DNA from: Brassica napus
Lineage: Eukaryota; Streptophyta; Magnoliopsida; Brassicales; Brassicaceae
Reading direction: 5' to 3'
Assembly: GCF_020379485.1 (NCBI RefSeq)
Contig: NW_026014650.1
Span: 98,501 to 162,500, forward strand
Length of the DNA: 64,000 nt
In this document: positions 2,895 through 58,493 of the stretch, piece after piece
How the letters are laid out: every line of letters starts with the position of its first letter
Numbering within the stretch: the stretch's first letter is position 1
Position numbers and translations under genes: made by a program
Notes under the pieces: model-generated
What the model was told of the DNA's origin: nothing
The model's input: the letters and a program-made list of their open reading frames with translations, nothing else
Databases searched by the model: none

Positions 2895-3236
2895 GTGGTA
2901 ATGGTGGGGAACAAAGCGTCTTTGCATCAGCATGGAAAGCTCATCCCATGTATCAACTGGCGCCTCACCTGCTCTCCTCCTGCTAGTCACAACTCGATCA
3001 TACCAGTTAATAGCATAGCCAGTTAACTCAGCAGCAGCAAGTCTAACCTTTTTAATATCAGAAAAATTTTGACAATCAAACACAAGTTTAATTTTTCTTT
3101 CCCATTCAAGAAAAGCATCCGGATCATTTTTGCCATCAAAACTTGGAATTTTCAATTTCAAACCACTCAAGCCATCATTGGTTCTTTCATTTCTACCAAA
3201 AGGATTGACATCACCTCGGTTTTGATGCCTAGGAAC
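2895..3236 (-). pseudogene. gag: Retrotransposon gag fragment, copy 1
   Basis: Encodes the central retrotransposon Gag domain: PSFDGKNDPDAFLEWERKI, then a WYD and a RRFVPHHYH stretch. It is cut on one side by a Tat LTR terminus (2894/2895) and on the other by a chromovirus LTR start (3236/3237). It is the duplicate of 6442-6783 with one amino-acid difference seen (RRRAGEAP versus RRREGEAP). Not functional. Confidence 0.85.
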
Positions 3237-4740
3237 TGTCACGCCCCCAATCCTGGAAAGGATTGTCGGGACGGCCATGGTTCGAGGACACAAGGAATCT
3301 TTAACTTAACCTTATAAGAGAAAAGAGACAGCTAAGACGAGTAAGACGGTAGCTGGACGAGATAGAGAAGTAGCTCGACCAGCTTAACGAAGCTAGGTTG
3401 AGTTCACTCCAGCTCAGCCACTACTAAGTCAGCTACACTAGCTGGACTACTAGCTCACTCAGCTGAGGCAGCTGGGAGTCAGCTCATCTCAGCTAGACGG
3501 ACTGTTCGGGTTTTAGGCCGATGGTCCGGGTCCGGGTCAGTGGCGGGCTGTGAGGTCCGGCCATGAGGCCATGGGCTGTTGGGTCTTTGGGCAAGGCCGT
3601 GGGCTAAGTCCAAGAGGCTTGGGGCATGGGTTGGGCTTGTGACCGCAAACCCAATCAGAAAGGGCGAAGGGATGCAAGTGGCCGAAAGGGGACAACCCTT
3701 GGCCGATGGTGCCCATTCGCTAGCAAGTTGTGCCTGTTCGTGGGGCAAGACTTACCCCCTCGTTTTCTATAAATATGGGGTCTCTCCTGTCGATTTCATT
3801 ATCCAATTCCATAGTAAAATACTCAGAGAAAAACGTAGAGAGAAAGAAAGAGAGAAAGAGAGAGTCCCGACCAAGAGATCGGCCGGAAAAGGGCCGGTCG
3901 TGGTGGTTTTGTATCTCTGGCAAGGAGAACGGTTTAGGAGAGAGGAGGCCGTGTGGTTATGAATACCCAAGGCATAGAGAAAGGTCTGGAGAAGGACTCC
4001 AAAGCCGTGGTTCAGTCAGATAGGGTCAGTGGGGTAACCACCGACTCATCGGCTAAGACCATCGGACAGTCCGAACCGGTCTAGCCATGGGCGTTTGGAT
4101 TGTGTCCCATTCTTCTTATTCTTTTCATACAATTCTTCTTCTACTCCTTCTGTACATTGGCGTGGCCTTGTGGATATGTTGGGATTGGTTTTAACCGTGG
4201 TTCTGGTTGAGTAATGCGGTCGCGGTCCATAACCGTCGAGTTAGGCGCGCACATGGTCTAAACTGGCCTCAGATGATCCGATTGAATAGAGGCGGTTCTG
4301 TTCTGTTCTGGACGGTTGCAACCCTTACCTGAACAGTCACAATGGTTCATGACTTATGTAGGTTAAGGCGTGGTCCTTTGGCCATAGGCCGGACACACGT
4401 ACGGACCAGACAGTCCATAAGGACAGTTAGGTCGAACGGTTGGAACATCTGAATGGGTGTGAGTTGCCAAGGGTCATGAGTTGCCAAGAGGCACGTGTGT
4501 CCAAAGGGTACTAGTTCCCAAAGGGTGTGAGTTCCAAACGGTGCCATTGGTTCAAGGCTTAGGCCGAACCAAGTGGACAGTCCGCGGCTGCATAGTCGAA
4601 CGGACGGACGGTTAGTTTAACCAGAGTGTTTTATCGCAAGGTCTGATTGGTTGCAAGGCAATCCGGTTTGGTCTTGGGCCTTACTCTGTGGTATGGATCC
4701 AGGCTTTGGGTCGGATCAGGTAAGAAGGTCCGTGAGCCTT
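3237..4740 (+). repeat. Chromovirus LTR, 5' part (copy 1)
   Basis: Starts TGTCACGCCCCCAATCC, as the LTRs at 6784, 17780 and 42439 do. The first part has many AGCT motifs (about 3330-3500). A TATA box (TATAAATA) sits near 3768-3775, followed by a GA-rich leader. The LTR is cut at 4740 by the internal region of a Tat element, so about 1.2 kb of its 3' end is absent compared with the solo LTR at 6784-9569. Confidence 0.85.
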
Positions 4741-6441: not shown

Positions 6442-8205
6442 GTGGTAATGGTGGGGAACAAAGCGTCTTTGCATCAGCATGGAAAGCTCATCCCATGTAT
6501 CAACTGGCGCCTCACCTTCTCTCCTCCTGCTAGTCACAACTCGATCATACCAGTTAATAGCATAGCCAGTTAACTCAGCAGCAGCAAGTCTAACCTTTTT
6601 AATATCAGAAAAATTTTGACAATCAAACACAAGTTTAATTTTTCTTTCCCATTCAAGAAAAGCATCCGGATCATTTTTGCCATCAAAACTTGGAATTTTC
6701 AATTTCAAACCACTCAAGCCATCATTGGTTCTTTCATTTCTACCAAAAGGATTGACATCACCTCGGTTTTGATGCCTAGGAACTGTCACGCCCCCAATCC
6801 TGGAAAGGATTGTCGGGACGGCCATGGTTCGAGGACATAAGGAATATTTAACTTAACCTTATAAGAGAAAAGAGACAGCTAAGACGAGTAAGACGGTAGC
6901 TGGACGAGATAGAGAAGTAGCTCGACCAGCTTAACGAAGCTAGGTTGAGTTCACTCCAGCTCAGCCACTACTAAGTCAGCTACACTAGCTGGACTACTAG
7001 CTCACTCAGCTGAGGCAGCTGGGAGTCAGCTCATCTCAGCTAGACGGACTGTTCGGGTTTTAGGCCGATGGTCCGGGTCCGGGTCAGTGGCGGGCTGTGA
7101 GGTCCGGCCATGAGGCCATGGGCTGTTGGGTCTTTGGGCAAGGCCGTGGGCTAAGTCCAAGAGGCTTGGGGCATGGGTTGGGCTTGTGACCGCAAACCCA
7201 ATCAGAAAGGGCGAAGGGATGCAAGTGGCCGAAAGGGGACAACCCTTGGCCGATGGTGCCCATTCGCTAGCAAGTCGTGCCTGTTCGTGGGGCAAGACTT
7301 ACCCCCTCGTTTTCTATAAATATGGGGGCTCTCCTGTCGATTTCATTATCCAATTCCATAGTAAAATACTCAGAGAAAAACGTAGAGAGAAAGAAAGAGA
7401 GAAAGAGAGAGTCCCGACCAAGAGATCGGCCGGAAAAGGGCCGGTCGTGGTGGTTTTGTATCTCTGGCAAGGAGAACGGTTTAGGAGAGAGGAGGCCGTG
7501 TGGTTATGAATACCCAAGGCATAGAGAAAGGTCTGGAGAAGGACTCCAAAGCCGTGGTTCAGTCAGATAGGGTCAGTGGGGTAACCACCGACTCATCGGC
7601 TAAGACCATCGGACAGTCCGAACCGGTCTAGCCATGGGCGTTTGGATTGTGTCCCATTCTTCTTATTCTTTTCATACAATTCTTCTTCTACTCCTTCTGT
7701 ACATTGGCGTGGCCTTGTGGATTGTTGGGATTGGTTTTAACCGTGGTTCTGGTTGAGTAATGCGGTCGCGGTCCATAACCGTCGAGTTAGGCGCGCACAT
7801 GGTCTAAACTGGCCTCAGATGATCCGATTGAATAGAGGCGGTTCTGTTCTGTTCTGGACGGTTGCAACCCTTACCTGAACAGTCACAATGGTTCATGACT
7901 TATGTAGGTTAAGGCGTGGTCCTTTGGCCATAGGCCGGACACACGTACGGACCAGACAGTCCATAAGGACAGTTAGGTCGAACGGTTGGAACATCTGAAT
8001 GGGTGTGAGTTGCCAAGGGTCATGAGTTGCCAAGAGGCACGTGTGTCCAAAGGGTACTAGTTCCCAAAGGGTGTGAGTTCCAAACGGTGCCATTGGTTCA
8101 AGGCTTAGGCCGAACCAAGTGGACAGTCCGGTTTGGTCTTGGGCCTTACTCTGTGGTATGGATCCAGGCTTTGGGTCGGATCAGGTAAGAAGGTCCGTGA
8201 GCCTT
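5698..8205 (+). repeat. Direct duplication, copy 2
   Basis: Second copy of 2151-4740, separated from the first by the 957-bp Tat 3' segment. Here the Tat LTR (5220-6441) and the solo chromovirus LTR (6784-9569) are complete, so this copy keeps the ancestral order. Copy 1 is truncated at both ends. Confidence 0.9.
6442..6783 (-). pseudogene. gag: gag fragment, central part
   Basis: Downstream part of a Ty3/gypsy-type gag on the minus strand. It joins in frame to 9575-9757 when the solo LTR 6784-9569 and one copy of the GGAAC duplication are removed. It carries the Retrotrans_gag-type core (PSFDGKNDPDAFLEWERKI ... RRFVPHHYH). The rest of the gene is cut off at 6441 by a Tat LTR. The element's primer-binding site is at 10314-10328. 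Confidence 0.85.
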
Positions 8206-9569
8206 TGGGCCAGACTTATAACTGGTCGATCGCACCTAGATCTTAACCAGACGGTTAGACGGGACTATGGATGATCCAGCTATGGTTGGATGGTTCTGGC
8301 CGCAAAGGCTAAGTGGGATATCTTACAATCAACTTTGGGTTGGTGAGTAGGATAGGCGCCATATGTCTTATGTAGGGAGTAGACCTACATGATGGCAATG
8401 GAAGGCCGGTTCTATCAGTACATGCGAAGTGGATGATGGCTTATCAAGTCTAGTGGTCGGATCATGTTTCATGACGATGGTTCGATGGCCGAACACTAGT
8501 ATGGATAGTCACGTTGCTGGAGCAAGAGTATTGATGTGATGCTTCTATATATCAACCTTGGTGTTGATAGCTTCGAGTTTGGCTAAGAGTCATGACGAAG
8601 CCTATGGCTAGTACTATGTGTCGTAGACCATAAGTATTGAGCCTAAGTATGGTTGTTCAAGGAAAGCTGTGTAAGATCTGATCATGGTTGAGTATGGACG
8701 ACCTGGCCTCTGAATGATGGTTCAAGGTGTCGGAACTAATCTGATTAAGGAATGCATCGGTTGGTATTAACAAATCATATATGTTGTCTGGGTTAAGTCC
8801 CAAGGCCGGTCAGGCCAGATGATGACTCATCAGTTCCAAGTCATGTGAGGATGGTTGGTTGATTGACTTAGGATCTAATGAGCTTTGTCATTCCAGAAGA
8901 TGGACTTGGTACTATTTCCTATAAGGCAAAAGGATTTCGGATTGTGCATGAGCCGAGAAAGGCCAGATGCAAACCCTTATCCTTTCAAAGACTTCTCAAA
9001 GGTTACTTATGTCTGTGGGGATGGTTGGTTGAATGACTAAATACCTACGGGAGTTGTTTGATGCAGGAGTCACGACAAGGACCTTAAGTAAGATCATGGA
9101 GTGATCGTGGTCCAGCTGTCAAGCAAGAGCAATTCGAGTCAATGGAGGACCGATGAGCTAATAAGCTCCATAGATGTGGCAAAGGTATGATCTAGCATTT
9201 ACTTATGTAGATCTAGATAGAATGGTTTAGGGGAATGAAACCTCAGAATCGTATGACTTGGTTTGGGTTTAGGATTGACCTTTAAGCTAATTGGTAGTTG
9301 AGTAAACTGACCAAGGCTAAGGTGATTCGACCAGACAAGTGTTAGATTGGTTTTAGACCAATGGTTAATTAGAAAATAATCCGCTGCGTATCTGTTGAAA
9401 GGATCTAAGCTATTAATGACTAGGGAAGTCTTTAGCTAAGGTTTAAGTTAGCCCTCGCCTGTGGGCGATATTATAAATAAAGGGCAAAAATTAAGAGGTT
9501 CGGCCAGGAAGTGGACCGAGCGACGTGAGGCATCCACCGCGGCCTAGGCGGTCGGGATCGGGTCTTACA
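6784..9569 (+). mobile_element. Solo chromovirus LTR with 5-bp TSD
   Basis: A 2,786-bp LTR from TGTCACGCC to GGGTCTTACA, flanked by GGAAC at 6779-6783 and 9570-9574. No primer-binding site or internal region is attached, and the gag coding frame resumes on both sides, so this is a solo LTR left by LTR-LTR recombination. It has an AGCT-rich stretch (about 6880-7050), TATAAATA at 7315-7322 and a GA-rich leader. An LTR-borne ATG frame starting MNTQGIEKGLEKDSK lies near 7506. That frame resembles in composition the LTR mini-exon at 18563-18616. Confidence 0.9.
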
Positions 9570-10328: not shown

Positions 10329-11325
10329 TGATAGAACCAAAATAAGGATCACTCTTTCGGTAAGGTTGATATGAACTCAGATCCGAGAGGATTGAGAACT
10401 GATGGATCGAGGGGTGACACTAAGGGTTGCGGAATAGCCCAAAGATACTACCATAGATTCGAAGGTTGCCGGATGTGACGCACCGGTCCAACACAACGAA
10501 GTGGTTCGCTTGGAGATGACCTCACCAATAGAAGTATGAATGTTCTAAGCAAAGAACAATGAGAGAAGACTCAAAAGAAGCAAAGGAAAATCGATGTGAA
10601 TTTATTAAGGGGGGTCATCACATACTTATAAGGTTTGTGAGTCAAAGAAACATAAAGACATTTGTGGGAAAAGACAACATAGAAGATAGAAATGAATGAA
10701 AACAAGACATAGAAACTAGAAATGAAGACTTTGACTAAAGACTGGTCAAGGTGCGGATTCTTGTGTTGACTGGTCCAGATTCACAAAGATGTCCAGGTTC
10801 ATTCTGTGGTGATCAGGTCGTCCGCGGTAAGGAGCAGGATGGATGTAAGGCTGCCCGCATGGTTGATCGTCGATGATCCATGAACGGATGAAGAGATAGC
10901 TCGACCCAAATCTTCAGAGAGCTTAAGTATCCTTCCTTTGCAGTAGTTGAAAGCATCGATCATCAAAGTGGTTGGAAAGGTTGTGATCAGCCTGATCCGG
11001 GCGTGCTGTACGTCCCAAACGGGCCAGGAAAGATAGGCTAAGTCTGAAATCTGATTCTTCTCGATGATCATGGGTTCTGGCTTGACTGTTGGCTCTAGAA
11101 TGGCGAATGGATCGGGGAAGAACGCCTGTGGTTTGGCTGATTCGGTCATCAGATCGTGGATCCATCCTTAGGTCACGGCCAGGTGCACGCGGGTCGTTCC
11201 GGTACACGGCTCTGTCCGTTGATCTGGTACGGATGAATGGCTGAACCTCAGTTGGACTGATCTGATCATCCTGGTCACCATGCTGAGTCTGCTCCACGTC
11301 CTGGTCCAGGTCCTGGGTTCTATCA
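10329..11325 (-). repeat. LTR of the minus-strand gypsy element
   Basis: Bounded by TGATAGAACC and GGTTCTATCA (a 10-bp terminal inverted repeat), with a primer-binding site downstream. Upstream, on the minus strand, a purine tract GAAGAGGGAGGGAA (11326-11339) precedes TGATAGAACCC, as at a 3' LTR. ORFs inside it (for example 10923-11357) look like run-through frames, except that the last residues before the tract (NPFEEGGND) resemble a pol end. A second TGATAGAACCCAGG at 11381 offers an alternative start. Boundaries are therefore uncertain by 56 bp. Confidence 0.65.
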
Positions 11326-11381
11326 TTCCCTCCCTCTTCAAAAGGATTTGACCACAAATCCGGATCACCTGGGTTCTATCA

Positions 11382-14300
11382 TGTGGGCTGTGTATTCAGT
11401 ACACACAGGACGTCCCTGGGTCTCCGCCAGCACACACAGGACGCCGTGGCTGTCTGTGTGTGTCCGTTAGCACACACGGGACGTCCGTGGCTGTCCCTCA
11501 GTACATATATCAGAACGTTGGTCCTTGGACTCAACACGCTGGCCCTTCCCGTGGACTGTTTGGGTGATTTTGTCCCACGTGGGCTGTCTGTTCAGTACAC
11601 ACAGGACGTCCATGGGTGTTCGCCAGCACACACAGGACATCTGTGGCTGTTTGTGGCTGACCGTCAGCACACACAGGACGTCCGTGTGTGTCCGTGGGTG
11701 TCCGTCAGCACACACAGGACGTCCGTGTGTGTCCTTCAGCATACACATGACATCCGTGGCTGTCCGTGTGTGTCCGTCTGCACACACAGGACGTTCGTGG
11801 CTGTCCATCAGTACACATATCAGCACGTTGGTCCTTGGACCCTGCACGCTGGCCCTTCCCGTGGACTGTTTGGGTTATTTTGGCCCACGTGGGCTATCTC
11901 TTCAGTACTCACAGGACGTCTGTGGGTGTCCGCCAGCACACACAGGACGTCCGTGGCTGTCCGTGTGTTTTCGTGTGTGTCCGTCAGCACACACAGGACG
12001 TTCGTGGCTGTCCATCAGTACACATATCAGCACGTTGGTCCTTGGACTCAGCACGCTTACCCTTCCCGTGGACTGTTCGGGTGATTTAGGCCCACGTGGG
12101 CTGTCTGTTCAGTACACACAGGACGTCCGTGGGTGTCAGTCAGCACACACAGGACATCCGGGGACGTCCGTGTGTGTCAGTCAGAACACACAGGACATCC
12201 GGGGATGTCCGTGTGTATCCGTGTGTGTCCGTCAGCACACACAGGACGTCCGTGGCTGTCTATCAGTACGCGTATCAGCACGTTGGTCCTTGGACTCCGC
12301 ACGTTGAACCTTCCAGTGTAGTGTTCGGGTGATTTTGGCCCACGTGGGCTGTCTGGTCAGTACACACAAGACGTCCGTGGGTGTCTGCCAGCACACACAG
12401 GATGTTTGTGGCTGTCCGTGCGTGTCCGTGTGTGTCCGTCTGTGTCCGCCAGCACACACAGGACGTCCGTGGGTGTCCGTCAGTACACATATCAGCACGT
12501 TGGTCCTTGGACTCAGCACGCTGACCCTTTCCGTGGACTGTTCAGGTAATTTTGGCCCACGTGGGCTGTCTGTTCAGTACACACAGGACGTCCGTGGGTG
12601 TCCGTCAGCACACACAGGAAGTCCGTCTGTGTGTCCGTCAGCACACATAGGACGTCCGTGTGTGTCCGTCAGCACACACAGGACGTCCGTGGCTGTACAT
12701 CAGTACACATATCAGCACGTTGGTCCTTGGACTCAGCACCTTGACCCTTCCCGCGTGAACTGTTCGGGTGATTTTAGCCCACGTGGGCTGTCTGGTCAGT
12801 ACACACAGGACGTCCGTGGGTGTCCGCCACCACACACAGGACATCCGTGGCTGTCCGTGTGTGTCCGTGTGTGTTCGTCTGTGTCCGTCAACACACATAG
12901 GACATCCGTGGCTGTCCATCAGTACACATATCAGCACGCTGGCCCTTCCCGTGGACTGTTTGGGTGATTTAGGCCCACGTGTGTGTTCGTCTGTGTCCGT
13001 CAGCACACACATGACGTCCGTGGGTGTCCGCCAGCGCACACAGCACGTCTGTGGCTATCTGTTGCTGTATGTCAGCACACATAGGTCGTCCGTGGCTGTC
13101 CGTGTGTGTCCGTGTGTGTCTGTGGTTGTCCGCCAACACACACGGGACGTTCGTAGCTGTTCGTGGCTGTCCGCCAGCACACTCAGGACGTCCGTGTGTG
13201 TCCGTCAGCACACACAGGACGTCCGTGTGTGTCCATGTGTGCCCGTCAGCACACAGTGGACGTCCGTTGCTGTCCATCAGTAAACATTTCAGCACGCTGG
13301 TCCTTGGACTCAGCACGCTGGCCCTTCCCGTGGACTGTTTCAGTGATTTTGGCCAACGTGGGCTGTCTGTTCAGTACACACAGGACGTCCGTGTGTGTCC
13401 GTCAGCACACACAGGACGTCCGTGACTGTCCGTGTGTGTCCGTGTTTGTCCGTCAGCACACACATACCGTCTGTTGCTGTCCATCAGTACACATATCAGC
13501 ACATTGGTCCTTGGACTCAGCACGTTGACCATTGCCGTGGACTGTTCGGGTGATTTTGGCCCTTGTGGGCTGTCTGTTCAGTACACACAGGACGTCCGTG
13601 GGTGTCTGCCAGCACACACAGTACGTCCGTGGCTGTCTGTGTGCGTCCGTGTGTGTCCGTCTGTGTCCGTCAGCACACAAAGGACGTTTGTGGCTGTCAA
13701 TCAGTACACATATCAGCACTTTGGTCCTTGGAGTCAGCATGCTGGCCCTTCCCGTGGACTGTTTGGGTGATTTTGGCCCACGTGGGCTGTCTGTTCAGTA
13801 CACACAGGACATCCGTGGGTGTCCGCCAGCACACACAGGACGTCTGTGGGTGTCCGTCAGTACACATATCAGCACGTTGGTCCTTGGACTCAGCACGCTG
13901 ACCCTTCCCGTGGACTGTTCGGGTAATTTTGGCCCACGTGGGCTGTCTGTTCAGTACACACAGGACGTCTGTGGGTGTCCGTCAGCACACACAGGACGTC
14001 TGTCTGTGTGTCCGTCAGCACACACAGGACGTCCGTGTGTGTCCGTCAGCACACACAGGACGTCCGTGGCTGTCCATCAGTACACATATCAGCACGTTGG
14101 TCCTTGGACTCAGCACCTTGATCCTTCCCGTGAACTGTTCGGGTGATTTTGGCCCACGTGGGCTGTCTGGTCAGTACACACAGGACGTCCGTGGATGTCC
14201 GCCACCACACACAGGACATCCGTGGCTGTCCGTGTGTGTCCGTGTGTGTTCGTCTGTGTTCGTCAGCACACATAGGACATCCGTGGCTGTCCATCAGTAC

Positions 14301-16123
14301 ACATATCAGCACGTTGGTCCTTGGACTCAGCACGCTGGCCCTTCCCGTGGACTGTTTGGGTGAATAAGGCCCACGTGGGCTGTATGTTCAGTACACACAT
14401 GACGTCCGTGGGTGTCCGCCAGCGCACACAGCACGTCTGTGGCTATCTGTTGCTGTCTGTCAGCACACATAGGTTGTCCGTGGCTGTCCGTGTGTGTCTG
14501 TGGGTGTCCGCCAACACACACAGGACGTTCGCAGCTGTCCGTGGCTGTCCGTCAGCACACACAGGACGTCCATGTGTGTCCGTCAGCACACACAGGACGC
14601 CCGTGTGTGTCCATGTGTGCCCGTCAGCACACACTGGACGTCCATGGCTGTCCATCAGTACACATATCAGCACGCTGGTCCTTGGACTCAGCACGCTGGC
14701 CCTTCCCGTGGACTGTTTGAGTGATTTTGGCCAACGTGGGCTGTCTGTTCAGTACACAAAGGACGTCCGTGTGTGTCCGTCAGCACACACAGGACGTCCG
14801 TGACTGTCCGTGTGTGTCCGTGTTTGTCCGTCAGCACACACATAACGTCCGTTGCTGTCCATCAGTACACATATCAGCACATTGGTCCTTGGACTCAGCA
14901 CGTGGACCCTTCCTGTGGACTGTTCGGGTGATTTTGGCCCTTGTGGGCTGTCTGTTCAGTAAACACAGGATGTCCGTGGGTGTCCGCCAGCACACACAGG
15001 ACGTCCGTGGCTTTCCGTGGCTGTCCATCTGTATACATATCAGCACGTTGGTCCTTGGACTTAGCACGCTGGCCCTTCTCGTGGACTTTTTGGGTGATTT
15101 TGGCCCACGTGGGCTGTCTGTTCAGTACACAGAGGACGTCCGTGGGTGTCCGCCAGCACACACAGGACATTCGTGGCTGTCCATGGCTGTCCGTCAGCAC
15201 ACACAGGACATTCGTGGCTGTTCTTGTGTGTCCGTGTATGTCTGTGTCCGCCGTCAGAACACACAGGACGTCCGTGGCTGTCCATCAGTACACATATCAG
15301 CACGTTGGTCCCTGGACTCAGCACGCTGGCCCTTCCCGTGGACTGTTTGGGTGATTTTGGCCCACGTGGGCTGTCCGTTCAGTACATACAGGACGTCCGC
15401 GGGTGTCTGCCAGCACACACATGACGTCTGTGGCTGTCCGTGGTTGTCTGTCAGCACACACAGGACGTCTGTGGCTGTCCGTGTGTGTACGTGTGTGTCT
15501 GTGTGTGTCCGCCAGCATACACAGGATGTTCGGGGCTGTCCGTGGCTGTCTGTCAGCACACACAGGACGTCCGTATGTGTCCTTCAGCACACACATGACG
15601 TCCGTGGCTGTCCGTGGCTGTCCGTCAGCACACAAAGGACGTCTGTGATTGTCCGTGTGTGTCCGTCAGCACACACAGGACGTCCATGGGTGTCCGTCAG
15701 CACACACAGGATGTCTGTGTGTGTCCCGTCAACACACACAGGACGTCCGTGGCTGTCCATGTGTGTCTGTGTGTGTCCGTCAGCACACACAGGATGTCCG
15801 TGGCTATCAATCAGTACACATATCAGCATGTTGGTCCTTGGACTCAGCACCCTGGCCCTTCTCGTGGACTGTTTGGGTGATTTTGGCCCACGTGGGCTGT
15901 CTGTTCAGTACACATAGGACGTCCGTGGGTGTCCGCCAGCACACATAGGACGTCTGTGGATGTCCGTGGCTGTCCTACAGCACACACTGGACGTCTGTGG
16001 CTGTCCGTGTGTGTCCGTGTCTGTCCGTCAGCATACACAGGACGTCCGTGGCTGTCCATCAGTACACATATCAGCACGTTGGTCCTTGGACTCAGCACGC
16101 TGACCCTTCCTGTGGACTGTTCG
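11382..16123 (+). repeat. Complex tandem repeat, block 1 (4.7 kb)
   Basis: About 18 copies of a core of about 110-125 bp: TTGGTCCTTGGACTCAGCAC, then CCCTTCCCGTGGACTGTT, then GGCCCACGTGGGCTGTCTG and CAGTACACACAGGACG. Between cores lie variable numbers of 30-40-bp subunits of the form CCGTCAGCACACACAGGACG + TCCGTGGCTGT. Core-to-core spacing runs from about 150 to 520 bp. Core landmarks occur near 11518, 11828, 12024, 12282, 12500, 12719, 13300, 13506, 13722, 13877, 14098, 14316, 14672, 14883, 15048, 15305, 15828 and 16079. Every subunit carries GGACGTCC and every core GCCCACGTGGGC. Long overlapping ORFs (up to 398 codons, 14721-15917) are by-products of a stop-poor repeat. It is not the CentBr-type centromere satellite that I know of. 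Confidence 0.9.
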
Positions 16124-17241: not shown

Positions 17242-17779
17242 TGTAAGACCCGATCCTGGATTCCCCAATCCAACCAGACCGCGGCCTCACCAAACAATGC
17301 AACCAATTTCATTTACATATTCAAGTTCAAGTGTTAAATAATTCTAAGTCTTTTTCAGAGTTTTGAGGTTCCAACATTCACACTTAAACAATCCAACATC
17401 AACTAGGGCAAATAGATATTTCATAGATAATAACCAAGGTTCATACATCATTCATCATCCTAATAAATAGATCACACACTAGAATCGCATAAGTTCACAA
17501 GTTGCACAAAAGGCTACAATAATTACACAATTTTCAGAATCAACCCAATCACCACACATCTTCCCATGGCCGCGGTCCTCATGGTGCTTTTCCTTACCAC
17601 GGTCCATTTCTGGTCATGGCCATCATCCGCGGCCTTGTCCGGTTACTCTTGGCCACACCTCTCACCTTAGGAGTTCGGTCTCCAGGGGCGACTTCCTTCT
17701 CTTTCTCCTTTGCCTTCTCCTTGTCTTTCTGCCTCAAATCCATCCTCTTGATCACACGCCTAAACACACCAGGAACACT
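17242..17779 (-). repeat. 3' LTR of minus chromovirus, U5-side part
   Basis: Continues the LTR interrupted at 44444. The minus-strand terminus GGGTCTTACA is at 17242, followed by the target duplication GATGA (17237-17241), which pairs with 50974-50978. It contains the LTR mini-exon MDLRQKDKEKAKEKEKEV...RTPK (minus strand, ending at 17666) followed by a splice-donor-like AAG|GTGAGA. In the 5' copy of this LTR the sequence after that AAG is gag. Confidence 0.85.
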
Positions 17780-18378
17780 TGTCACGCCCCCAATCCTGAG
17801 TAGGATTGTTGGGACGGCCATGGTTCGAGGAAACGTGCAAGCCAGTCCTAGGACATCAAGGCAAGCGTTCCATGGTCGAGAAAGAAGGTTAAGGACATAA
17901 GGAAACTTAGACTTAACCTTATACAAGCTAAGAGACAGCTAGGACGAGTAAGACGGTAGCTGGACGAAGTGGACGAGTAGCTCGGCCAGCTCAAGGAAGC
18001 TAGTTTCAGTTCACTCCAGCTCAGTCCCTACTAGGTCAGCTCCACTAGCTGGACTACTAGCTCAATCAGCTGAGGCAGCTGAGAGTCAGCTCATCTCAGC
18101 TAGACGGACTGTCCAGGCTTTAGGCCGATGGTCCGGGTCCGGGTCAGTGGCGGGCTGTGAGGTCCGGCCATGAGGCCATGGGCTGTTGGGTCTTAGGACA
18201 AGGCCATGGGCTAAGTCCAGGAGGCTTGGGGCGTGGGTTGGGCTTGTGGCCGACCCCAAACCCAATCAGAAAGGGTGAAGGGATGCAAGTGGCCGAAAGG
18301 GGACAACCCTTGGCCGATGGTGCCCATTCGCTAGCAAGTCATGCCTGTTCATGGGGCAAGACTTACCCCCTCGTTTTC

Positions 18379-18386
18379 TATAAATA
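18379..18386 (+). promoter_or_regulatory. TATA box of chromovirus LTR
   Basis: TATAAATA inside the LTR, conserved at 43038-43045 in the partner LTR and at 7315-7322 in the solo LTR. It precedes the GA-rich leader and the mini-exon ATG by about 180 bp, the expected place for the retroelement promoter. Confidence 0.75.
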
Positions 18387-18562
18387 TGGGGGCTCTCTGG
18401 TCGATTTCATTATCCAATTCCAGAGTAAAATACTCAAAGAAACCGTAGAGAGAAAGAAAGAGAGAAAGAGAGAAAGAGAGAGTTCCGGCCAAGAGAAAGG
18501 CCGATTGTGGTGGTGTTGTGTTCCGGCGACTCTGATCGTTTGAGAACTAACTCCGGTCAAGA

Positions 18563-18616
18563 ATGGGAGATCAAGACAAGGAGAAGAGCATGGAGAACCC
18601 AGACGTGGTTCACAAG
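18563..18616 (+). CDS. gag: Putative LTR-encoded first exon of gag (18 codons)
   Basis: ATG to AAG, exactly 18 codons, MGDQDKEKSMENPDVVHK, followed by GTATGT, a strong plant 5' splice site. Joining to the acceptor at 19945 gives AGKSKSGKSRRSKR and then the ATG at 19988, all in frame with gag. The same frame and donor are present in the 3' LTR (43213-43266). Charged, Lys-rich composition matches the gag N-terminus. Supporting evidence comes from the minus-strand chromovirus, in which the equivalent LTR exon is already fused to gag. Splicing itself is inferred. Confidence 0.6.
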
Positions 18617-19945
18617 GTATGTGATGGGCCGTGGCTCCATCAGACCGAACAGACGGTCCATGCGACCGCACCGCGGCTCTGCTCAGTTCCTAAGTCCCAT
18701 CCGGCTCTCCTTATCTGTTTCAATTCGTTTCTCTTCTCTTCTCTCTGGTTAAACACGAAAGGTTGTGTTGGTTGAGTCCAAGGGACACGTCCCTAGGCTT
18801 TGGCCGAACATAATCAAACCGCTAGCCTAGACACGGGTCGGTTAGTGGGATGATCCGATCGCACCAAGACTGGGCGGTTAGGACGAACGGTTGGGAATGA
18901 CCTAAAGGGCACGAGTTGTCAAGAGTCACGAGTGTCCAAGAGGCACGAATGGCCAAAGGGTACATGTTCCAAACGGTGTCTTTCGGGACAGGTTAGGACC
19001 GATCCTTATGGATCAGCCTATGGCTTGTCTAGTCAAGACAAGGTCACGGTTTGTCTAAGCCAAGGTAGAGTCGCAAGGTCTGACCGGTTGCTAAGCCTTC
19101 CGAATTAGGCTTGAGGCTTACTCGGCCGATTGGATCCAGGCCTAAGGCCGGATCAGGTAAGGGAGTCCGTTGGGCCATCGAGCCGGACTCCATTGGCCGG
19201 TCGCACCTAGATTCTATCCGGTTAGACGGATTGGTCTTTGGGGACGATCCGGATCTGTTCGCATGTTCTGTTATCTATTCTGGACTCCATTGGGGTGGTT
19301 GGTTGAATGACTTAGGATACGGTAGGTAGGTTCATACGTTTTATGATTATGTTGACTGAGGTTTATCTAAGTTCTAGGAACCAAGCCAAGCATTGTAGAA
19401 TCAATCCGTTCTATTCTCGGTTATGATTAATGCTTATCTGGTTGTGGTTTCAGGAACTAAGGATGGTTCTGGTCAAGCCAAGGAGCCGTGAAGGCTCGGT
19501 CAGTGAGAGGCTGTGTAACGTGTGGTTAGATGATACTAAGGATGAACTAGTGATTGTCTATGAGACTGTTAAGAAGTTGTGTATTGAATCTCATGTTTCT
19601 TAGTAATACAAAGTTTATACATTGTTATTCCGCTGTGCAATCTGTTCCTTTGTTTATGAACCTCATATTCGAATATGACTTAGCAAATAAAAGACTTAAA
19701 ATGGATCAAACAAGCAAAGAAATTAATAAGTAAGCATTCGTATCCAGTTGGGTCAAGAGACCAGGAACGGGTCTTACAAGTTGGTATCAGAGCATGCTTG
19801 ATTCTAGGATAGTTGGGTTATGTAGTCCACACACACACGCAGCCAGCTGATTAGGTCTCACGGTGAGGTTTGATTGCTTAGTCTAGGGATTGTTTTGTTC
19901 TGTTTATGTTAGTGTGTTTTGTACTAACATTGACTGAATCCTTAG
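18617..19945 (+). other. Putative intron spanning LTR, PBS and leader
   Basis: 1,329 nt, GTATGT ... TACTAAC (19922-19928) ... CCTTAG. It has a strong donor, the ideal branch-point heptamer 17 nt before the acceptor, and a phase-0 join to gag. It would remove the end of the LTR and the primer-binding site, so spliced RNA could be translated but not primed normally for reverse transcription. Confidence 0.55.
19779..19793 (+). other. Primer-binding site, initiator-tRNA-Met type
   Basis: AGTTGGTATCAGAGC directly after the LTR terminus CTTACA. It matches the usual plant initiator-Met primer-binding sequence. Confidence 0.9.
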
Positions 19946-19987
19946 GCTGGAAAAAGCAAATCGGGAAAGTCCCGAAGAAGTAAGAGA

Positions 19988-21403
19988 ATGGCCGGTCAGT
20001 CTAGCCAAGTGGCCGTGGACGGAACTAATCTGTCCGGTTTGCAAACCGATCCGGCCGCGGCTAACGCTGAAAATGTGTTGCCAACTGATGAGGCTAATCT
20101 TACGGGGACGCAACAGGATGGTCAGGAACATCAGGAGAGTGATGAGGAAGTGGAATCCTCGAACGCTAACCGTGATGGTGGCCAGCGTGAGAAAGTGGCC
20201 GATGGTACGGCCAATGTAACCACAACACTGTCCAAAGAGGACTTGTTAGAGGCCATGAAGGTAATGGGGACTCAGGTGGCGGCTATGGCCCAATTGTTCA
20301 CGCCATTAGTGAACTCCTCAGTTGGCCAAGCTACGCATGTGGCTACAACCGCCCCCAACACCAATGGTCCAGTTGTGGAAACGGTCAAGGTGATCGAGAT
20401 TGATCCACCAGAAAGGACCGGGAAAAAGGTGGACTATCTGAGTTTGCTTCAGCACATCTCCCGTCTAGGGACGAAGCATTTCTCAGGAAGCACCGATCCT
20501 ATTGAGGCAGACGAGTGGAGGAGTAGGCTAGTCCGAAACTTCAGCTCAACTCGTTGTCCCGAGGATTACAAGAGAGACATTGCGGTTCACTTCCTGGAAG
20601 GGGACGCGCATAATTGGTGGCTGGCTGTGAACAAGCGCACCAATGGAAGTCTCCAGAGTTTTGCGGATTTCGAAGATGAATTCAACCGCAAATACTTTCC
20701 TGCAGAGGCTTGGGACCGTCTGGAAGGTAGATTCCTAGACCTTACCCAAGGCCGCAGGGCCGTACGTGAGTACGAAGAGGAGTTCAACCGGCTCCGACGT
20801 TTTGTTGGAAGGGAACTTGAGGACGAGACAGTCCAGGTTCGTCGGTTCATTCGAGGCTTAAGGCCGGAGCTGAGAACTCACTGTTCGATCTGCACCTTCA
20901 GCACCGTCGGAGAGCTGGTTGAACGTGTAGCTCTTTTGGAGTCTAACTTGGCCGAGGAAGCCAAGCTTAAGACAAAGTCGCAGTCTGTCCCGACGGGTAA
21001 GACTAACGACCGAAAGAGGAAGTGGGACCAGGTTGACGGAGGCAAGGCCTCTAGTGGACGACCTGAATGTCCCAAGTGTGGTAAGAACCATCCAGGTGAA
21101 TGCTGGAAAGCCATGGGAGCTTGTGTGAGATGTGGCAGCTTGGATCATTCCATCCGAGATTGCACTCGACCAAGCCGGACTCAGGGCCAATCCAGTGGCA
21201 GCGGCTCTCGGACTTGTTTCCATTGCGGCCAAAGCGGACACTTCCAAAGTGAATGTCCTAAGCGGCAAGGAGGACAAGGGAAGGGTCGTGGAGACACGGG
21301 AAAGTCGACCCAGAGCAGGCCGACCATAACACCAAGGGTGTATGAGCTGTCCCGTGACGACGGTGCTTCTGGATCGTTTGATTCGATCTCTGGTAATTCC
21401 TGA
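19988..21403 (+). CDS. gag: Chromovirus Gag (main exon)
   Basis: 471 codons from the ATG at 19988, with an in-frame upstream extension to 19946 if spliced. The N-terminal third is acidic and low-complexity. The Gag core lies at about residues 140-300 (ADEWRSRLVRNF ... HFLEGDAHNWWL ... FNRKYFPAEAWDRLEGRF). Two zinc-knuckle regions follow: a Cys-rich CPKCGKNHPGECWKAMGACV + RCGSLDH, and a classic CCHC, CFHCGQSGHFQSEC. Gag assembles the cytoplasmic particle and packages RNA. The frame stops at 21401-21403, but SISG|GTAATT marks an intron-like segment whose removal continues into protease. No lesion seen in this gene. Confidence 0.85.
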   Translation: MAGQSSQVAVDGTNLSGLQTDPAAANAENVLPTDEANLTGTQQDGQEHQESDEEVESSNANRDGGQREKVADGTANVTTTLSKEDLLEAMKVMGTQVAAMAQLFTPLVNSSVGQATHVATTAPNTNGPVVETVKVIEIDPPERTGKKVDYLSLLQHISRLGTKHFSGSTDPIEADEWRSRLVRNFSSTRCPEDYKRDIAVHFLEGDAHNWWLAVNKRTNGSLQSFADFEDEFNRKYFPAEAWDRLEGRFLDLTQGRRAVREYEEEFNRLRRFVGRELEDETVQVRRFIRGLRPELRTHCSICTFSTVGELVERVALLESNLAEEAKLKTKSQSVPTGKTNDRKRKWDQVDGGKASSGRPECPKCGKNHPGECWKAMGACVRCGSLDHSIRDCTRPSRTQGQSSGSGSRTCFHCGQSGHFQSECPKRQGGQGKGRGDTGKSTQSRPTITPRVYELSRDDGASGSFDSISGNS

Positions 21404-21482
21404 ATTTATCTGTTTACATTCAATAGAATTCTTGGTCTGGAACCTAGAGTGGCTAGGGGATTCTGATGTGGGTCTCTTATAG
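21393..21482 (+). other. Putative gag-pol intron (90 nt)
   Basis: Begins GTAATTCC after TCTG, is T-rich, has a branch-like CTGAT about 20 nt before the end, and finishes TCTTATAG. Removing it turns S-I-S-G-stop into [13 protein letters not shown], in frame with protease. The minus-strand element has the same arrangement (48564-48656, 93 nt), and the 3' half is conserved at 58171. Confidence 0.55.
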
Positions 21483-42438: not shown

Positions 42439-44443
42439 TGTCACGCCCCCAATCCTGAGTAGGATTGTTGGGACGGCCATGGTTCGAGGAAACGTGCAAG
42501 CCAGTCCTAGGACATCAAGGCAAGCGTTCCATGGTCGAGAAAGAAGGTTAAGGACATAAGGAAACTTAGACTTAACCTTATACAAGCTAAGAGACAGCTA
42601 GGACGAGTAAGACGGTAGCTGGACGAAGTGGTTGAGTAGCTCGGCCACCTCAAGGAAGCTAGGTTCAATTCACTCCAGCTCAGTCCCTACTAGGTCAGCT
42701 CCACTAGCTGGACTACTAGCTCACTCAGCTGAGGCAGCTGAGAGTCCGCTCATCTCAGCTAGACGGACTGTCCGGGCTTTAGGCCGATGGTCCGGTTCCG
42801 GGTCAGTGGCGGGCTGTGAGGTCCGGCCATGAGGCCATGGGCTGTTGGGTCTTAGGACAAGGCCATGGGCTAAGTCCAGGAGGCTTGGGGCGTGGGTTGG
42901 GCTTGTGGCCGACCCCAAACCCAATCAGAAAGGGCGAAGGGATGCAAGTGGCCGAAAGGGGACAACCCTTGGCCGATGGTGCCCATTCGCTAGCAAGTCA
43001 TGCCTGTTCGTGGGGCAAGACTTACCCCCTCGTTTTCTATAAATATGGGGGCTCTCTGGTCGATTTCATTATCCAATTCCAGAGTAAAATACTCAGAGAA
43101 ACCGTAGAGAGAAAGAAAGAGAGAAAGAGAGAGTTCCGGCCAAGAGAAAGGCCGATTGTGGTGGTGTTGTGTTCCGGCGATCTGATCGCTTGAGAACTAA
43201 CTCCGGTCAAGAATGGGAGATCAAGACAAGGAGAAGAGCATGGAGAACCCAGACGTGGTTCACAAGGTATGTGATGGGCCGTGGCTCCATCAGACCGAAC
43301 GGACGGTCCATGCGACCGCACCGCGGCTCTGCTCGGTTCCTAAGTCCCATCCGGCTCTCCTTATCTGTTTCAATTCGTTTCTCTTCTCTTCTCTCTGGTT
43401 AAACACGAAAGGTTGTGTTGGTTGAGTCCAAGGGACACGTCCCTAGGCTTTGGCCGAACATAATCAAACTGCTAGCCTAGACACGGGTCGGTTAGTGGGA
43501 TGATCCGATCGCACCAAGACTGGGCGGTTAGGACGAACGGTTGGGAATGACCCAAAGGGCACGAGTTGTCAAGAGTCACGAGTGTCCAAGAGGCACGAAT
43601 GGCCAAAGGGTACATGTTCCAAACGGTGTCTTTCGGGACAGGTTAGGACCGATCCTTATGGATCAGCCTATGGCTTGTCTAGTCAAGACAAGGTCACGGT
43701 TTGTCTAAGCCAAGGTAGAGTCGCAAGGTCTGACCGGTTGCTAAGCCTTCTGGATTAGGCTTGAGGCTTACTCGGCCGATTGGATCCAGGCCTAAGGCCG
43801 GATCAGGTAAGGGAGTTCGTTGGGCCATCGAGCCGGACTCCATTGCCCGGTCGCACCTTGATTCTATCCGGTTAGACGGATTGGTCTTTGGGGACGATCC
43901 GGATCTGTTCGTGTGTTCTGTTATCTATTCTGGACTATCTATCTGATTCTAAGTCAAGGGTGGTTGGTTGAATGACTTAGGATACGGTAGGTAGGTTCAT
44001 ATGTTTTATGATTATGTTGACTGAGGTTTATCTAAGTTCTAGGAACCAAGCCAAGCATTGTAGAATCAATCCGTTCTATTCTCGGTTATGATTAATGCTT
44101 ATCTGGTTGTGGTTTCAGGAACTAAGGATGGTTCTGGTCAAGCCAAGGAGCCGTGAAGGCTTGGTCAGTGAGAGGCTGTGTAACGTGTGGTTAGATGATA
44201 CTAGGGATGAACTAGTGATTGTCTATGAGACTGTTAAGAAGTTGTGTATTGAATCTCATGTTTCTAAGTAATACAAAGTTTATACATTGTTATTCCGCTG
44301 TGCAATCTGTTCCTTTGTTTATGAACCTCATATTCGAATATGACTTAGCAAATAAAAGACTTAAAATGGATCAAACAAGCAAAGAAATTAATAAGTAAGC
44401 ATTCGTATCCAGTTGGGTCAAGAGACCAGGAACGGGTCTTACA
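42439..44443 (+). repeat. 3' LTR of plus-strand chromovirus
   Basis: 2,005 bp, TGTCACGCC to CTTACA, then ACACT (44444-44448), the target duplication. TATAAATA at 43038-43045; LTR mini-exon at 43213-43266 with the same AAG|GTATGT donor as the 5' LTR. Confidence 0.93.
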
Positions 44444-45181
44444 ACACTCAAGAACAATCTCTTGGATCAAATCGGCCAATCCAAGGTTTGTGTCTCTCTT
44501 TCTCTCTTGAATTTTCTCTGTGTTTCTCTCTGTGTGAAAGTGAGTAAAAATCGACCAGAATGGCAGAAATGAGAGAGAGAGGACGACTTAAACTGTCCCC
44601 AACCGCCTGGGCGAACAGTTACCAAAAATCACATCCCTTCTTCCCAAAACCGTCCCATAACCGCCCATTGGCGGTTTCTCCCCTTTTCTTCCTTTGACAA
44701 ATCGATCACTGAGCCTCAGCTCACACTCTGGAAGCTTGCCCACTCCCTGTCCCAAGCCTAAGACCAATTTGGTCGAACCGTCCTGCACCCGGACCATCGG
44801 CTCACCCAGTAACCGTCCCGGACTCGTCCACACTGATCCGAACCAGAACGCACCGTTCACCGGATTGAGCTGACCTCCAGCTGTTCCCAGCTGAGTGAGC
44901 TAGTCCACCAGCTCCTGTGAGCTGAACAGATCATGGTGAACTGAATACTAGCTGAACCGAGCTGATTGAACTCAAACCAACACTCGTCCAGCTGCCTAAA
45001 CACTCACTCAACTCCTTTACCCTTGTTTCCATCGTATCCTGGTTAAGTCTCAGCTGACTGATGCCCTTAACCTTCATTCAGGGCCATGATACGCTTGTCT
45101 CAAGGTCTAATGACCTGACTGGTGCGTCTCCCCGCACCATGGCCCGTCCGGGCGATCCTATCTAGGATCGGGGACATGACA
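44444..45181 (-). repeat. 3' LTR of minus chromovirus, U3-side part
   Basis: Minus strand: starts TGTCATGTCCCCGATCC at 45181 and is interrupted at 44444 by the plus-strand chromovirus; continues at 17779. AGCT-rich stretch at about 44870-45060. Nearly identical to 50236-50973. The polypurine tract AGTGGGGGAGACT (minus strand) lies at 45182-45194. Confidence 0.9.
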
Positions 45182-48563: not shown

Positions 48564-48656
48564 CTACACAAGGCCCATCAAAGTATATCTATCCATCCTA
48601 GGTTCCATACAATGCAATTCTACTGGAATTGTAAAAGTAGTAGTCTAGAATGTTAC
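48564..48656 (-). other. Putative gag-pol intron (93 nt), second copy
   Basis: Minus strand: ATCACTG|GTAACATT ... CCTTGTGTAG|GGACC. Removal joins A-I-T-G to T-L-S-I-G-G-V-E-T in frame, the same join as in the plus-strand chromovirus. The interior sequence is diverged, while both ends and the reading-frame outcome are kept. Confidence 0.55.
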
Positions 48657-50205
48657 CAGTGATCGCTTGGAAAGGCTGAGTCCCATCCACATCCTTGGAT
48701 AGCTCATACACACGAGGTGTTGAGGTCTGACCTCGTCCCTGGACTGGCCTGCTAGCCTCTCCACGTCCCTTACTTTGGTTGCCTTGCAACTTAGGGCAAT
48801 CCCTGCGGTAGTGGCCCTTCTGGCTGCAGTGGTGATAGGTCCTGGACTCACCCAACGGGCTTGGACAATCCTTGGCAATGATCCATCTCACCACATCGAG
48901 TACAGGCACCCATGGCCTTCCAGCACTCTCCACCGTGGTATCGACCACACTTAGGGCACTTTGACCTACCACTTGAGGTTTTACCCTCCTTGGTCGAGTC
49001 CCTCTTCCCCTTCTTGTCACCACTCTGACCCGAGGATACCACCACACTCTTCAGCTTCTGCTTACCCTCCTCGGTGAGGTTGGTCTCCAGCAAGGCCATC
49101 CTCCCAACCAACTCAGAAACCGTGTGGAACTTACAAACAGAACAGTAGGTTCGAAGTTCCACCCTTAGGCCTCGGATGAACCTTCGGACTTGAACCTTCT
49201 CATCCTCTAGTTCTCTTCCCACATACCTCCTGAGTTGGTTGAACTCTTCTTCTGCTCACGAACAGTCCTCCGTCCCTGAGTCAAGTCCAGGAACTTGGAC
49301 TCCAAACGATCCCACGCCTCAGCAGGAAAGTACTTATGGTTGAACTCAACCTCAAAGTCAGCAAAGTGCTCAATGGTACCATTGGTACGCTTGTCCAAAG
49401 CTAACCACCGATTATGTGCATCTCCCTCCAGGAAGTGTACTGCTATGTCCTTCTTGTAATCCTCAGGACATCGTGTGGACTTGAAGTTTCGAACCAACCT
49501 GGTTCTCCACTCGTCCGCCTCCATAGGATCAACACTTCCAGCAAAGTGTTTGGTTCCCAACTTGGAGATATGCTCCAGCACCTTCAGGTAGTCCATACCA
49601 TGCACTGGCCAGATCGGTGGGTCTATCTCAATCACCTCAGCCACACGGCCAGCACCAACATCAGCCACTCCAGCAGCAACCCGAACCGGGGGATTAGCCT
49701 GTCCCACGGACGAGTTCACCAATGGTGTGAACGCCTGTGTCAAGGAGGCTATCTGAGCTCCCATGATCTGCATAGCCTCCACCAAGCCCCTTATGGTCGG
49801 CTCAATGACCTCCTCGGCACCAGTGACCCGAACATTGTTTGCATCAACATTCTGGCCACTCTCAGCACCAACGTTGGACGACCCAGTATCGTCTCCATGG
49901 ACTTGCTCTTGCTGCTCGTCCACATTAGTTTCATTAACCTCAGTAGGAAGTGTTGGACCCACTGGAAGTCCGGTTGCATTGTCCACCTGCTCCACCAGAG
50001 CGGGTAGCACTGTGGTTGGAATGGTTCCAGCTGGTAACACTCCGGTCTGTTCAGCACCATCCTGCCCCACTGCTCCAGACGCTCCAGTTGCCTCCTTTCC
50101 TTTCCGAGATTTATACCTTCTTGTACCCTTAGGAGTTCGGTCTCCAGGGGCGACTTCCTTCTCTTTCTCCTTTGCCTTCTCCTTGTCTTTCTGCCTCAAA
50201 TCCAT
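48657..50205 (-). pseudogene. gag: Minus chromovirus Gag, fused to LTR exon
   Basis: Starts at the LTR ATG (50203-50205), MDLRQKDKEKAKEKEKEV...RTPK, and passes without a gap into GTRRYKSRKGKEATG and the gag N-terminus. Gag core: ADEWRTRLVRNF, HFLEGDAHNRWL and FNHKYFPAEAWDRLE. The frame shifts near 49245 (REQKKSS instead of REYEEEF) and again near 48870. Zinc knuckles: CPKCGRYHGGECWKAMGACT + RCGEMDH, then YHHCSQKGHYRRDC, in which the first Cys of the CCHC is Tyr. Non-functional, but the LTR-gag junction is informative. Confidence 0.8.
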
Positions 50206-58126: not shown

Positions 58127-58493
58127 GAACTTAGAATGGATTAGATGATTAGAAAAGGGGGTCTTATGTAGGGACCCTATGTATTGGTGGTGTGGAAACA
58201 CACGTACTTTTAGATACTGGGGCTACACACAGCTTTGTAAGCCCAGATATGATCGGAAAAGGGTTGTTCCAGATGGAAACGGAGGATGATCCTTGCATAG
58301 TGAATGCGGCCGGTGGGAAAGTAATGCATTCATTAGGGCGAGTAAAGGATATCCCAATAGTGATCCAGGATAGCGTTATGCCTATGGATCTGGTTGTGGT
58401 CTGCCTTACGAATCATGAGGTGATATTAGGCATGGACAGGCTTGGAAAGAACCGCGCCACTCTGGACTGTCACAAAGGAAGGGTGCAGTTTGC
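58127..58493 (+). pseudogene. pol: Chromovirus protease fragment
   Basis: Begins with the 3' end of the gag-pol intron (TCTTATGTAG at 58162-58171). It then reads G-T-L-C-I-G-G-V-E-T and protease with [20 protein letters not shown] and [20 protein letters not shown]. It stops being protease near 58493, where satellite sequence begins in the same open frame. The active-site DTG is intact in this fragment. Confidence 0.85.

What the first reader, a model, noticed from the sequence alone, without database searches (positions are those of the whole stretch)
18563..19988. Gag start exon inside the LTR with an intron that removes the primer-binding site
An 18-codon ATG exon ends AAG|GTATGT inside the 5' LTR. 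The acceptor CCTTAG follows a perfect TACTAAC branch point after the primer-binding site, and the join is phase 0 with gag. Spliced RNA would encode an N-terminally extended Gag (about 503 aa) but lack the priming site. Translation and replication RNAs would thus be separated. I do not know of a described chromovirus with such an intron.
Basis: partly seen in the sequence, partly recalled or inferred. Interest (0 to 1): 0.9.

Follow-up and report, generated by a model that had tools for sequence, protein, structure and literature searches.

The report
Gag start exon inside an LTR
In rapeseed, a group of retrotransposons seems to keep the start of its Gag protein inside its terminal repeat and to reach the rest of Gag by splicing out the site where copying must begin, so that one RNA makes protein and another can be copied.

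Summary
The donor motif alone is near chance; comparison carries the case. Other families of the same genome (Brassica napus) carry a homologous LTR mini-exon, with third-position-biased changes in 3 of 8 comparisons. In the R family, gag has no in-frame ATG for 118 codons in 7 of 8 copies. Elements of four families have lost exactly the stretch from the exon-1 donor to a second acceptor in U5, with the primer site kept where I read it: fossils of spliced RNA. The focal type has 19 such places (control 0) and no convincing place that joins exon 1 to gag, as expected if only RNAs with a primer site are copied. My model: exon 1 joins either gag (Gag mRNA, primer site lost) or U5 (primer site kept, Gag closed). 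The join to gag is inferred; no RNA data were available. Parts of the scheme are known from plant pararetroviruses, BARE and Ogre; I found no Gag start exon in an LTR with an intron over the primer site.

The parts
17780..19778 (+). 5' LTR of the focal element (TG...CA), holding promoter, exon 1 and the start of exon 1b
18378..18389 (+). TATA box-like CTATAAATATGG, 184 nt before the exon-1 ATG; no ATG between TATA+25 and exon 1
18563..18616 (+). exon 1, MGDQDKEKSMENPDVVHK, start of Gag in the spliced model
18617..18622 (+). 5' splice site GTATGT
18617..19945 (+). proposed 1,329-bp intron that contains the U5 end, primer-binding site and leader
   Evidence: excision inferred
19448..19453 (+). 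alternative 3' splice site TTTCAG in the LTR
   Evidence: related copies lack exactly the stretch between donor and this site
19454..19778 (+). start and LTR part of exon 1b; the exon continues over the primer site
   Evidence: its end is not determined
19686..19691 (+). AATAAA, candidate poly(A) signal; would put exon 1 and the start of exon 1b within R
   Evidence: inferred
19782..19793 (+). primer-binding site TGGTATCAGAGC (initiator Met tRNA type, recalled)
19922..19928 (+). branch-point-like TACTAAC
19940..19945 (+). 3' splice site CCTTAG of the gag exon
19946..21403 (+). exon 2: gag frame (485 codons, stop 21401-21403); first in-frame ATG 19988
21393..21482 (+). candidate second intron (90 nt, GT..AG) that would remove the gag stop and join gag to protease in phase 1
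   Evidence: inferred
42439..44444 (+). 3' LTR; carries the same donor (AAGGTATGT 43264-43272)
50128..50205 (-). exon 1 of the reverse-strand relative (R element), MDLRQKDKEKAKEKEKEVAPGDRTPK, running straight into gag at 50127 with no U5 or primer site
17242..17779 (-). remainder of the R element's 3' LTR (other part 44445-45181), with donor CCTAAG|GTGAGA at 17666/17665; interrupted by the focal element

Best explanation
The element makes alternatively spliced RNAs from one promoter. The first AUG lies in a coding mini-exon in the LTR. Joined to exon 2 (18616/19946), it gives an mRNA for a 503-codon Gag that lacks U5 and the primer-binding site and so cannot be primed for reverse transcription. 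Joined to a U5 acceptor (18616/19454), or left unspliced, the RNA keeps the primer site, but the exon-1 frame closes before gag and, in unspliced RNA, 27 ATGs precede the gag exon, so it serves replication and not Gag synthesis. Because the intron carries the primer site, RNA spliced to gag is rarely copied, so the intron is not lost through retrotransposition. SHOWN by sequence: the anatomy, the conserved exon, the missing gag ATG in the R and L077 families, and exact excision from exon-1 donor to U5 acceptor in genomic copies. INFERRED: joining of exon 1 to gag in vivo, translation, and the division of labour between RNAs.
For: (1) A mini-exon was found in 7 of 10 divergent gag loci fetched, one of them frame-broken and one shortened, and in the L077 and R families. 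Codon-position bias is significant in 3 of 8 pairs (R v L087 3/1/10, p=0.0014; R v L090 p=0.004; L087 v L090 p=0.04); pN/pS is 0.05-0.64 in 21 of 21 non-independent pairs. (2) Of 94 protein hits I read 17: Raphanus P0024 has METRGKEKAAEKSVGTSKHTPK directly before GTRKKSRKNK; Sinapis P0022 has MGTRGKDKDLEKGLSTPERMPK with other sequence before gag. (3) R-family gag: first Met at codon 119 in 7 of 8 unspliced copies and none upstream before the stop; L077: codon 123. (4) Exact exon-1-to-U5 loss: focal type 19 places, 16 exact, control 0, 15 of 19 read; L085 family both LTRs of one element; R 3 places (2 read) and L077 family 1 (not read). Junction ambiguity 3-4 nt. (5) Focal Gag junction: 11 matches, all at the 3-mismatch limit, control 5, beside 402 acceptor sites. 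(6) The R element has an intron-less 5' LTR between target duplications TCATC.
Against: No RNA evidence. R-family intron-less junctions coincide with an 11-nt direct repeat, so deletion can explain them. Focal exon 2 has its own ATG at codon 15; L089 has a Met at codon 6, L090 at 46, and L086 (frame-shifted) at 20. Five of 8 pairs show no significant codon-position bias, both focal pairs among them (p=0.39 and 1.0). One B. napus gene model (P0003) uses the acceptor but not this donor. Acceptors in most other families are AAG, a weaker form (recalled). Absence of the focal Gag junction is also expected if that RNA is never made.
Confidence: 0.8

Rival explanations
1. The exon-1 donor is used, but only towards the U5 acceptor: an intron in the leader. 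Exon 1 is an upstream reading frame and Gag starts at its own ATG in exon 2 (19988), reached by reinitiation or by shunting as in plant pararetroviruses.
For: The clean fossil copies show only this splice. Focal exon 2 has an ATG at codon 15, L089 at codon 6. Pararetrovirus leaders use a first short frame for shunting (PMC5902531, passages).
Against: R and L077 families have no gag Met until codons 119 and 123. Exon 1 is a whole number of codons, in phase with gag, in 7 of 7 sequences compared. 25-45 ATGs intervene in unspliced RNA. The Raphanus model joins exon 1 to gag.
Confidence: 0.13
2. Splicing to gag is incidental; intron-less R copies arose by deletion between 11-nt direct repeats, and the mini-exon serves another short protein made of exon 1 plus exon 1b.
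For: 11-nt repeat at the R junction. The exon-1 frame stays open for 22-49 codons into exon 1b in the eight sequences compared.
Against: Exon 1b shows no codon-position bias in 7 of 7 comparisons, while exon 1 does in 3 of 8; gag without an ATG remains unexplained.
Confidence: 0.05
3. Chance: a short frame and consensus-like splice sites with no function.
For: The donor motif alone is at chance frequency.
Against: Conserved exon, exact intron losses with a zero control, gag lacking an ATG.
Confidence: 0.02

Closest known systems
BARE1 of barley (Ty1/copia), Gag-only spliced RNA and separate RNA pools for translation and replication (PMC3735527, passages read)
   Same: Splicing favours Gag; translated and copied RNAs are distinct classes.
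   Different: There a 104-nt intron just beyond the gag coding domain creates a stop after Gag; no LTR exon supplies the start and the intron does not span the primer site.
Plant pararetroviruses RTBV and CaMV (PMC5902531 and PMC4498817, passages read)
   Same: In RTBV splicing fuses a leader frame to a distant frame; in CaMV some spliced RNAs are copied into DNA, but not those that lost the primer site.
   Different: Not LTR elements; the RTBV fusion makes P4; no exon lies in an LTR.
Ogre (Ty3/gypsy) (PMC6317226, passage read; the original paper is not held)
   Same: A partly spliced intron in a plant Ty3/gypsy element controls polyprotein expression.
Foamy retroviruses (PMC3185757, passages read)
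   Same: Splice donor in the R region of the LTR, upstream of the primer site.
   Different: Gag is made from full-length RNA there; spliced RNAs make Pol and Env.
Spliced integrated retrotransposed elements (SpIREs) of human L1 (PMC5860796, abstract and outline read)
   Same: Integrated copies of spliced element RNA.
   Different: L1 has no LTR or tRNA primer site (recalled); splicing there inhibits retrotransposition.

Membership tests
Ty3/gypsy LTR retrotransposon | LTRs, target duplication, gag, then protease, RT, RNase H, integrase order | tested here: met
   LTRs and TSD; Retrotrans_gag, RVP_2, RVT_1, RNase H and rve found in that order in separate pieces; the element is broken by nested insertions.
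Chromovirus | Chromodomain at the integrase C-terminus | tested here: inconclusive
   Chromo PF00385 E=0.025, 14.9 bits against a cut-off of 25.1, in window 42037-42459; not listed for the R element piece at E<=10. No RT phylogeny was made.
[quoted passage not shown]
   The intron studied lies before gag; the second candidate lies between gag and protease; protease and RT share one frame.
BARE-type Gag subgenomic RNA | Small intron at the gag end whose removal creates a stop after Gag | tested here: not met
   Removal of the candidate second intron would take away the gag stop instead.
RTBV-like leader-frame fusion by splicing | First leader frame spliced in phase to a downstream frame | tested here: inconclusive
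   Anatomy fits; no RNA data. This is likeness of mechanism, not membership.
Spliced integrated copies | Genomic copies missing exactly a GT..AG intron, with element ends and TSD | tested here: met
   TSD AGATA seen for one focal group and TCATC for the R element; TSDs of the other copies were not examined.

The most novel reading that the evidence does not exclude
An LTR retrotransposon lineage of Brassicaceae carries its primer-binding site on an alternative exon: skipping it builds the Gag start and makes a translation-only RNA, including it makes a replication RNA. Because the site needed for copying sits in the intron, retrotransposition cannot remove that intron, which explains how a retroelement can keep one.
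Probability: 0.65. Interest if true: 0.9.

Novelty: new variant of a known kind. Interest (0 to 1): 0.8.

Why it matters
How transcripts balance translation against reverse transcription is called a major question in the abstract of the BARE paper (PMC3735527). Here the choice would be made in the nucleus by splice-site selection and would be irreversible, because the translation RNA has no primer site. It also offers a reason why an intron can persist in an element that replicates through RNA, and it means that Gag starts taken as the first ATG after the LTR may be wrong in such lineages. Existing RNA reads can test it directly.

Tried and rejected
Focal exon 1-to-gag fossil copies: none beyond control. 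Loss between the donor-like site after the primer site (CTCACG|GTGAGG, GT at 19863) and the gag acceptor: 0 matches, so that site has no fossil support. A protein-coding role for exon 1b: no codon-position bias. The focal exon-1b rows were in the wrong frame by my indexing error and are not used; one search uses the right frame. N-terminal search with P0024 residues 1-60 found only itself. A first motif script timed out. Intron-less R copies first looked like many events; 15 of the 17 whose flank I could read share one 5' flank, so they are duplicates of one insertion, and only L058 and L061 differ. In the trees one row (L060) was dropped for lack of a readable junction and one (L056) was a badly cut long branch in the LTR tree. 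Papers on centromeric elements, beet chromoviruses and einkorn centromeres mention no gag intron in the passages found.

Full report
What is there. The focal element runs from 17780 to 44444, with LTRs 17780-19778 and 42439-44444 that are 97.4% identical and a 5-bp target duplication ACACT. Its interior is broken by nested insertions. The host genome (997 Mb) matches Brassica napus: contigs C741 (1,445,458) and C782 (120,154) have the lengths listed for B. napus proteins P0064 and P0072.

Is it more than chance? Not by motif: AAGGTRWGT occurs 3 times against 2.7 expected. The comparative evidence is what counts, in four lines.

First, the exon is conserved. From a gag search I fetched about 3 kb upstream of 10 divergent gag copies. 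A homologous mini-exon is present in 7 of 10: L085, L086, L087, L089 and L090 open, L082 open but shortened, L084 frame-broken. It was not found in L081, L083 and L088. It is also present in L077 and in the R family. The peptides include MDTRQKDKEKEKEKDVPPGERTPK, MDTRQKEKTVEKSLGTSEHTPK, MATRGKEKDLEKGLSTPERTPK and MDLRQKDKEKAKEKEKEVAPGDRTPK. All end in AAG before GT. The seven exons compared are whole numbers of codons, in phase with gag, and differ in length by whole codons. By codon position the differences are biased to the third in 3 of 8 pairs: R v L087 3/1/10 (p=0.0014), R v L090 4/1/10 (p=0.004), L087 v L090 1/0/4 (p=0.04). The other five are not significant: R v L086 p=0.06, L087 v L086 0.18, L086 v L077 0.26, R v focal 0.39, L077 v focal 1.0. 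pN/pS is 0.05-0.64 in 21 of 21 pairs, which are not independent. Of 94 protein hits I read 17. A Raphanus model joins such a peptide directly to gag (P0024), a Sinapis model has it with other sequence before gag (P0022), and a B. napus model has the focal exon 1 and the focal acceptor but another donor (P0003).

Second, relatives need it. In the R family, 8 of 9 loci read without the junction contain the acceptor. In 7 of these 8 the gag frame has no Met until codon 119. In the eighth, L070, the frame closes after 38 codons with no Met. In all 8 the 18-19 codons open upstream hold none. L077 gag has no Met until codon 123, and L087 none in the 43 codons held. Against this, Met comes at codon 15 in the focal element, 6 in L089, 46 in L090 and 20 in the frame-shifted L086. 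Exon 1 lies 174-184 nt behind a TATA box in the 4 of 7 sequences where one was found. No ATG intervenes in the focal element; one does in each of the other six (counted over 200 nt where no TATA was found). Between exon 1 and gag there are 25-45 ATGs.

Third, copies of spliced RNA sit in the genome. L085 lacks exactly the stretch from CCTAAG|GTACAG to TTTTCAG|GTCCTG that its relatives L084 and L086 have, and keeps the primer site. That showed a second acceptor in U5. The focal LTR has a homologous TTTCAG|GAACTAAGG (exon from 19454). I therefore searched for the predicted focal junction and found 19 places, 16 exact, two with one and one with two mismatches; the reversed-pattern control found none. 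I read 15 of the 19 (not read: C640:42892, C963:196502, C964:9305, C1312:28006). They include an insertion with target duplication AGATA in several duplicates, a second insertion (L092, L102), and a diverged subfamily (L104). Four of the eight longer stretches hold the primer site behind the LTR (L091, L092, L095, L096); the other four end in the AGATA flank and are 3' or solo LTRs. The same exact loss occurs at 2 places 6.4 kb apart in the L085 family, taken as the two LTRs of one element, and at 3 places in R (2 read over 141 bases) and 1 in the L077 family (one mismatch, not read). The breakpoints are ambiguous by only 3-4 nt, which is the splice consensus itself. So the exon-1 donor has been used by the spliceosome in at least four families. 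Within a family the copies need not be independent losses, because they keep the primer site and can multiply.

Fourth, what is missing. The focal junction that drops the primer site is not found: 11 matches, all at the limit of 3 mismatches, against 5 for the control, although the acceptor pattern is present 402 times. RNAs spliced with the primer site kept have been copied; for RNAs spliced without it there is no focal trace. CaMV behaves alike (PMC4498817, passages). This absence is also what one would see if that RNA were never made, so it is consistent rather than decisive.

The R element. The reverse-strand neighbour into which the focal element inserted has a 5' LTR (from 50973) whose exon 1 (50205-50128) runs straight into gag, without U5 or primer site, between target duplications TCATC (50978-50974 and 17241-17237). 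In the genome, 21 of the 40 matches scored (894 candidates) cross that junction, and 12 places match the 24-base junction exactly. Fifteen of the 17 with readable flank share one flank and are duplicates of one insertion; L058 and L061 differ. The intron-less copies are not one clade: the LTR tree needs at least 3 changes of the label and the gag tree at least 2, which suggests up to three origins. The element's 3' LTR also lacks a stretch bounded, but for one base, by GGCCGT|GTGAGT and CCAG|GACCAG, with 1 nt of ambiguity; 29 places in the genome show that shortening, 7 of them exactly the predicted product, control 0. Copies of spliced RNA made by template switching would explain this. However, an 11-nt direct repeat (AACTCCTAAGG) spans donor and acceptor in this family, so deletion cannot be excluded. 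I do not count it as proof.

Mechanism. The best-supported scheme is a choice of acceptor from one donor. Exon 1 to exon 2 gives Gag mRNA without a primer site. Exon 1 to U5, or no splicing, gives RNA with a primer site in which the exon-1 frame closes. Exon 1b shows no codon-position bias in 7 of 7 comparisons, so I do not propose that it encodes a protein. A candidate poly(A) signal at 19686 would place exon 1 and the start of exon 1b in R (inferred).

Prior knowledge. A review and a survey, read in passages, name Ogre and EVADE as intron cases, Ogre and Bianca as split-frame cases, and say that plant LTR elements generally lack introns (PMC12786077, PMC6317226). BARE, RTBV, CaMV and foamy viruses supply parts of the scheme. 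I found no description of a Gag start exon in an LTR with an intron over the primer site in searches, of which I saw listings and then passages of 11 papers and the abstract and outline of one; the library lacks most subscription papers, including the Ogre splicing paper.

Limits. There are no RNA data. The 30 focal LTRs (30 of 30 with exon 1 and GTATGT; 29 of 30 with the U5 acceptor; 22 of 30 with primer site and gag acceptor in the stretch held; the window's own copy is one of them) were chosen by similarity to that very stretch and are biased. The chromodomain is only a weak match, so I leave the name chromovirus open.

Noticed in passing
window 21393-21482; R element about 48565-48660 (-): A 90-nt GT..AG stretch would remove the gag stop and join gag to protease in phase 1 (..ISG|TLMIGGVETN), matching contiguous Eutrema and Arabidopsis proteins P0037 and P0070. 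The R element in the window keeps its counterpart although it lacks the first intron; in L077 only the acceptor side was seen.
   Followed up: partly
window 3231-4733 and 6778-8262: A third, related LTR family with its own mini-exon-like frame MNTQGIEKGLEKDSKAVVQSD; several focal-type copies are inserted in that frame (AGATA target).
   Followed up: partly
window 17242-50978: The composite of focal element inside the R element's 3' LTR recurs: 15 of the 29 places with the shortened R LTR lie within 1.1 kb of a focal LTR listed, so the block has been duplicated on many contigs.
   Followed up: partly
window 11000-16100 and 52500-60600: Long stretches of short, degenerate repeats that read open in several frames; similar sequence flanks some of the fetched elements.
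   Followed up: no
window 19857-19868: A donor-like CTCACG|GTGAGG about 70 nt after the primer site has counterparts in the R and L077 families; no fossil loss from it was found.
   Followed up: partly
L064-L071, exon 1 end and gag acceptor; L077: In the R family the last 10 bases of exon 1 and of the intron are the same (AACTCCTAAG), and in L077 both end CCCAAG; perhaps a trace of recombination between spliced and unspliced RNA.
   Followed up: no
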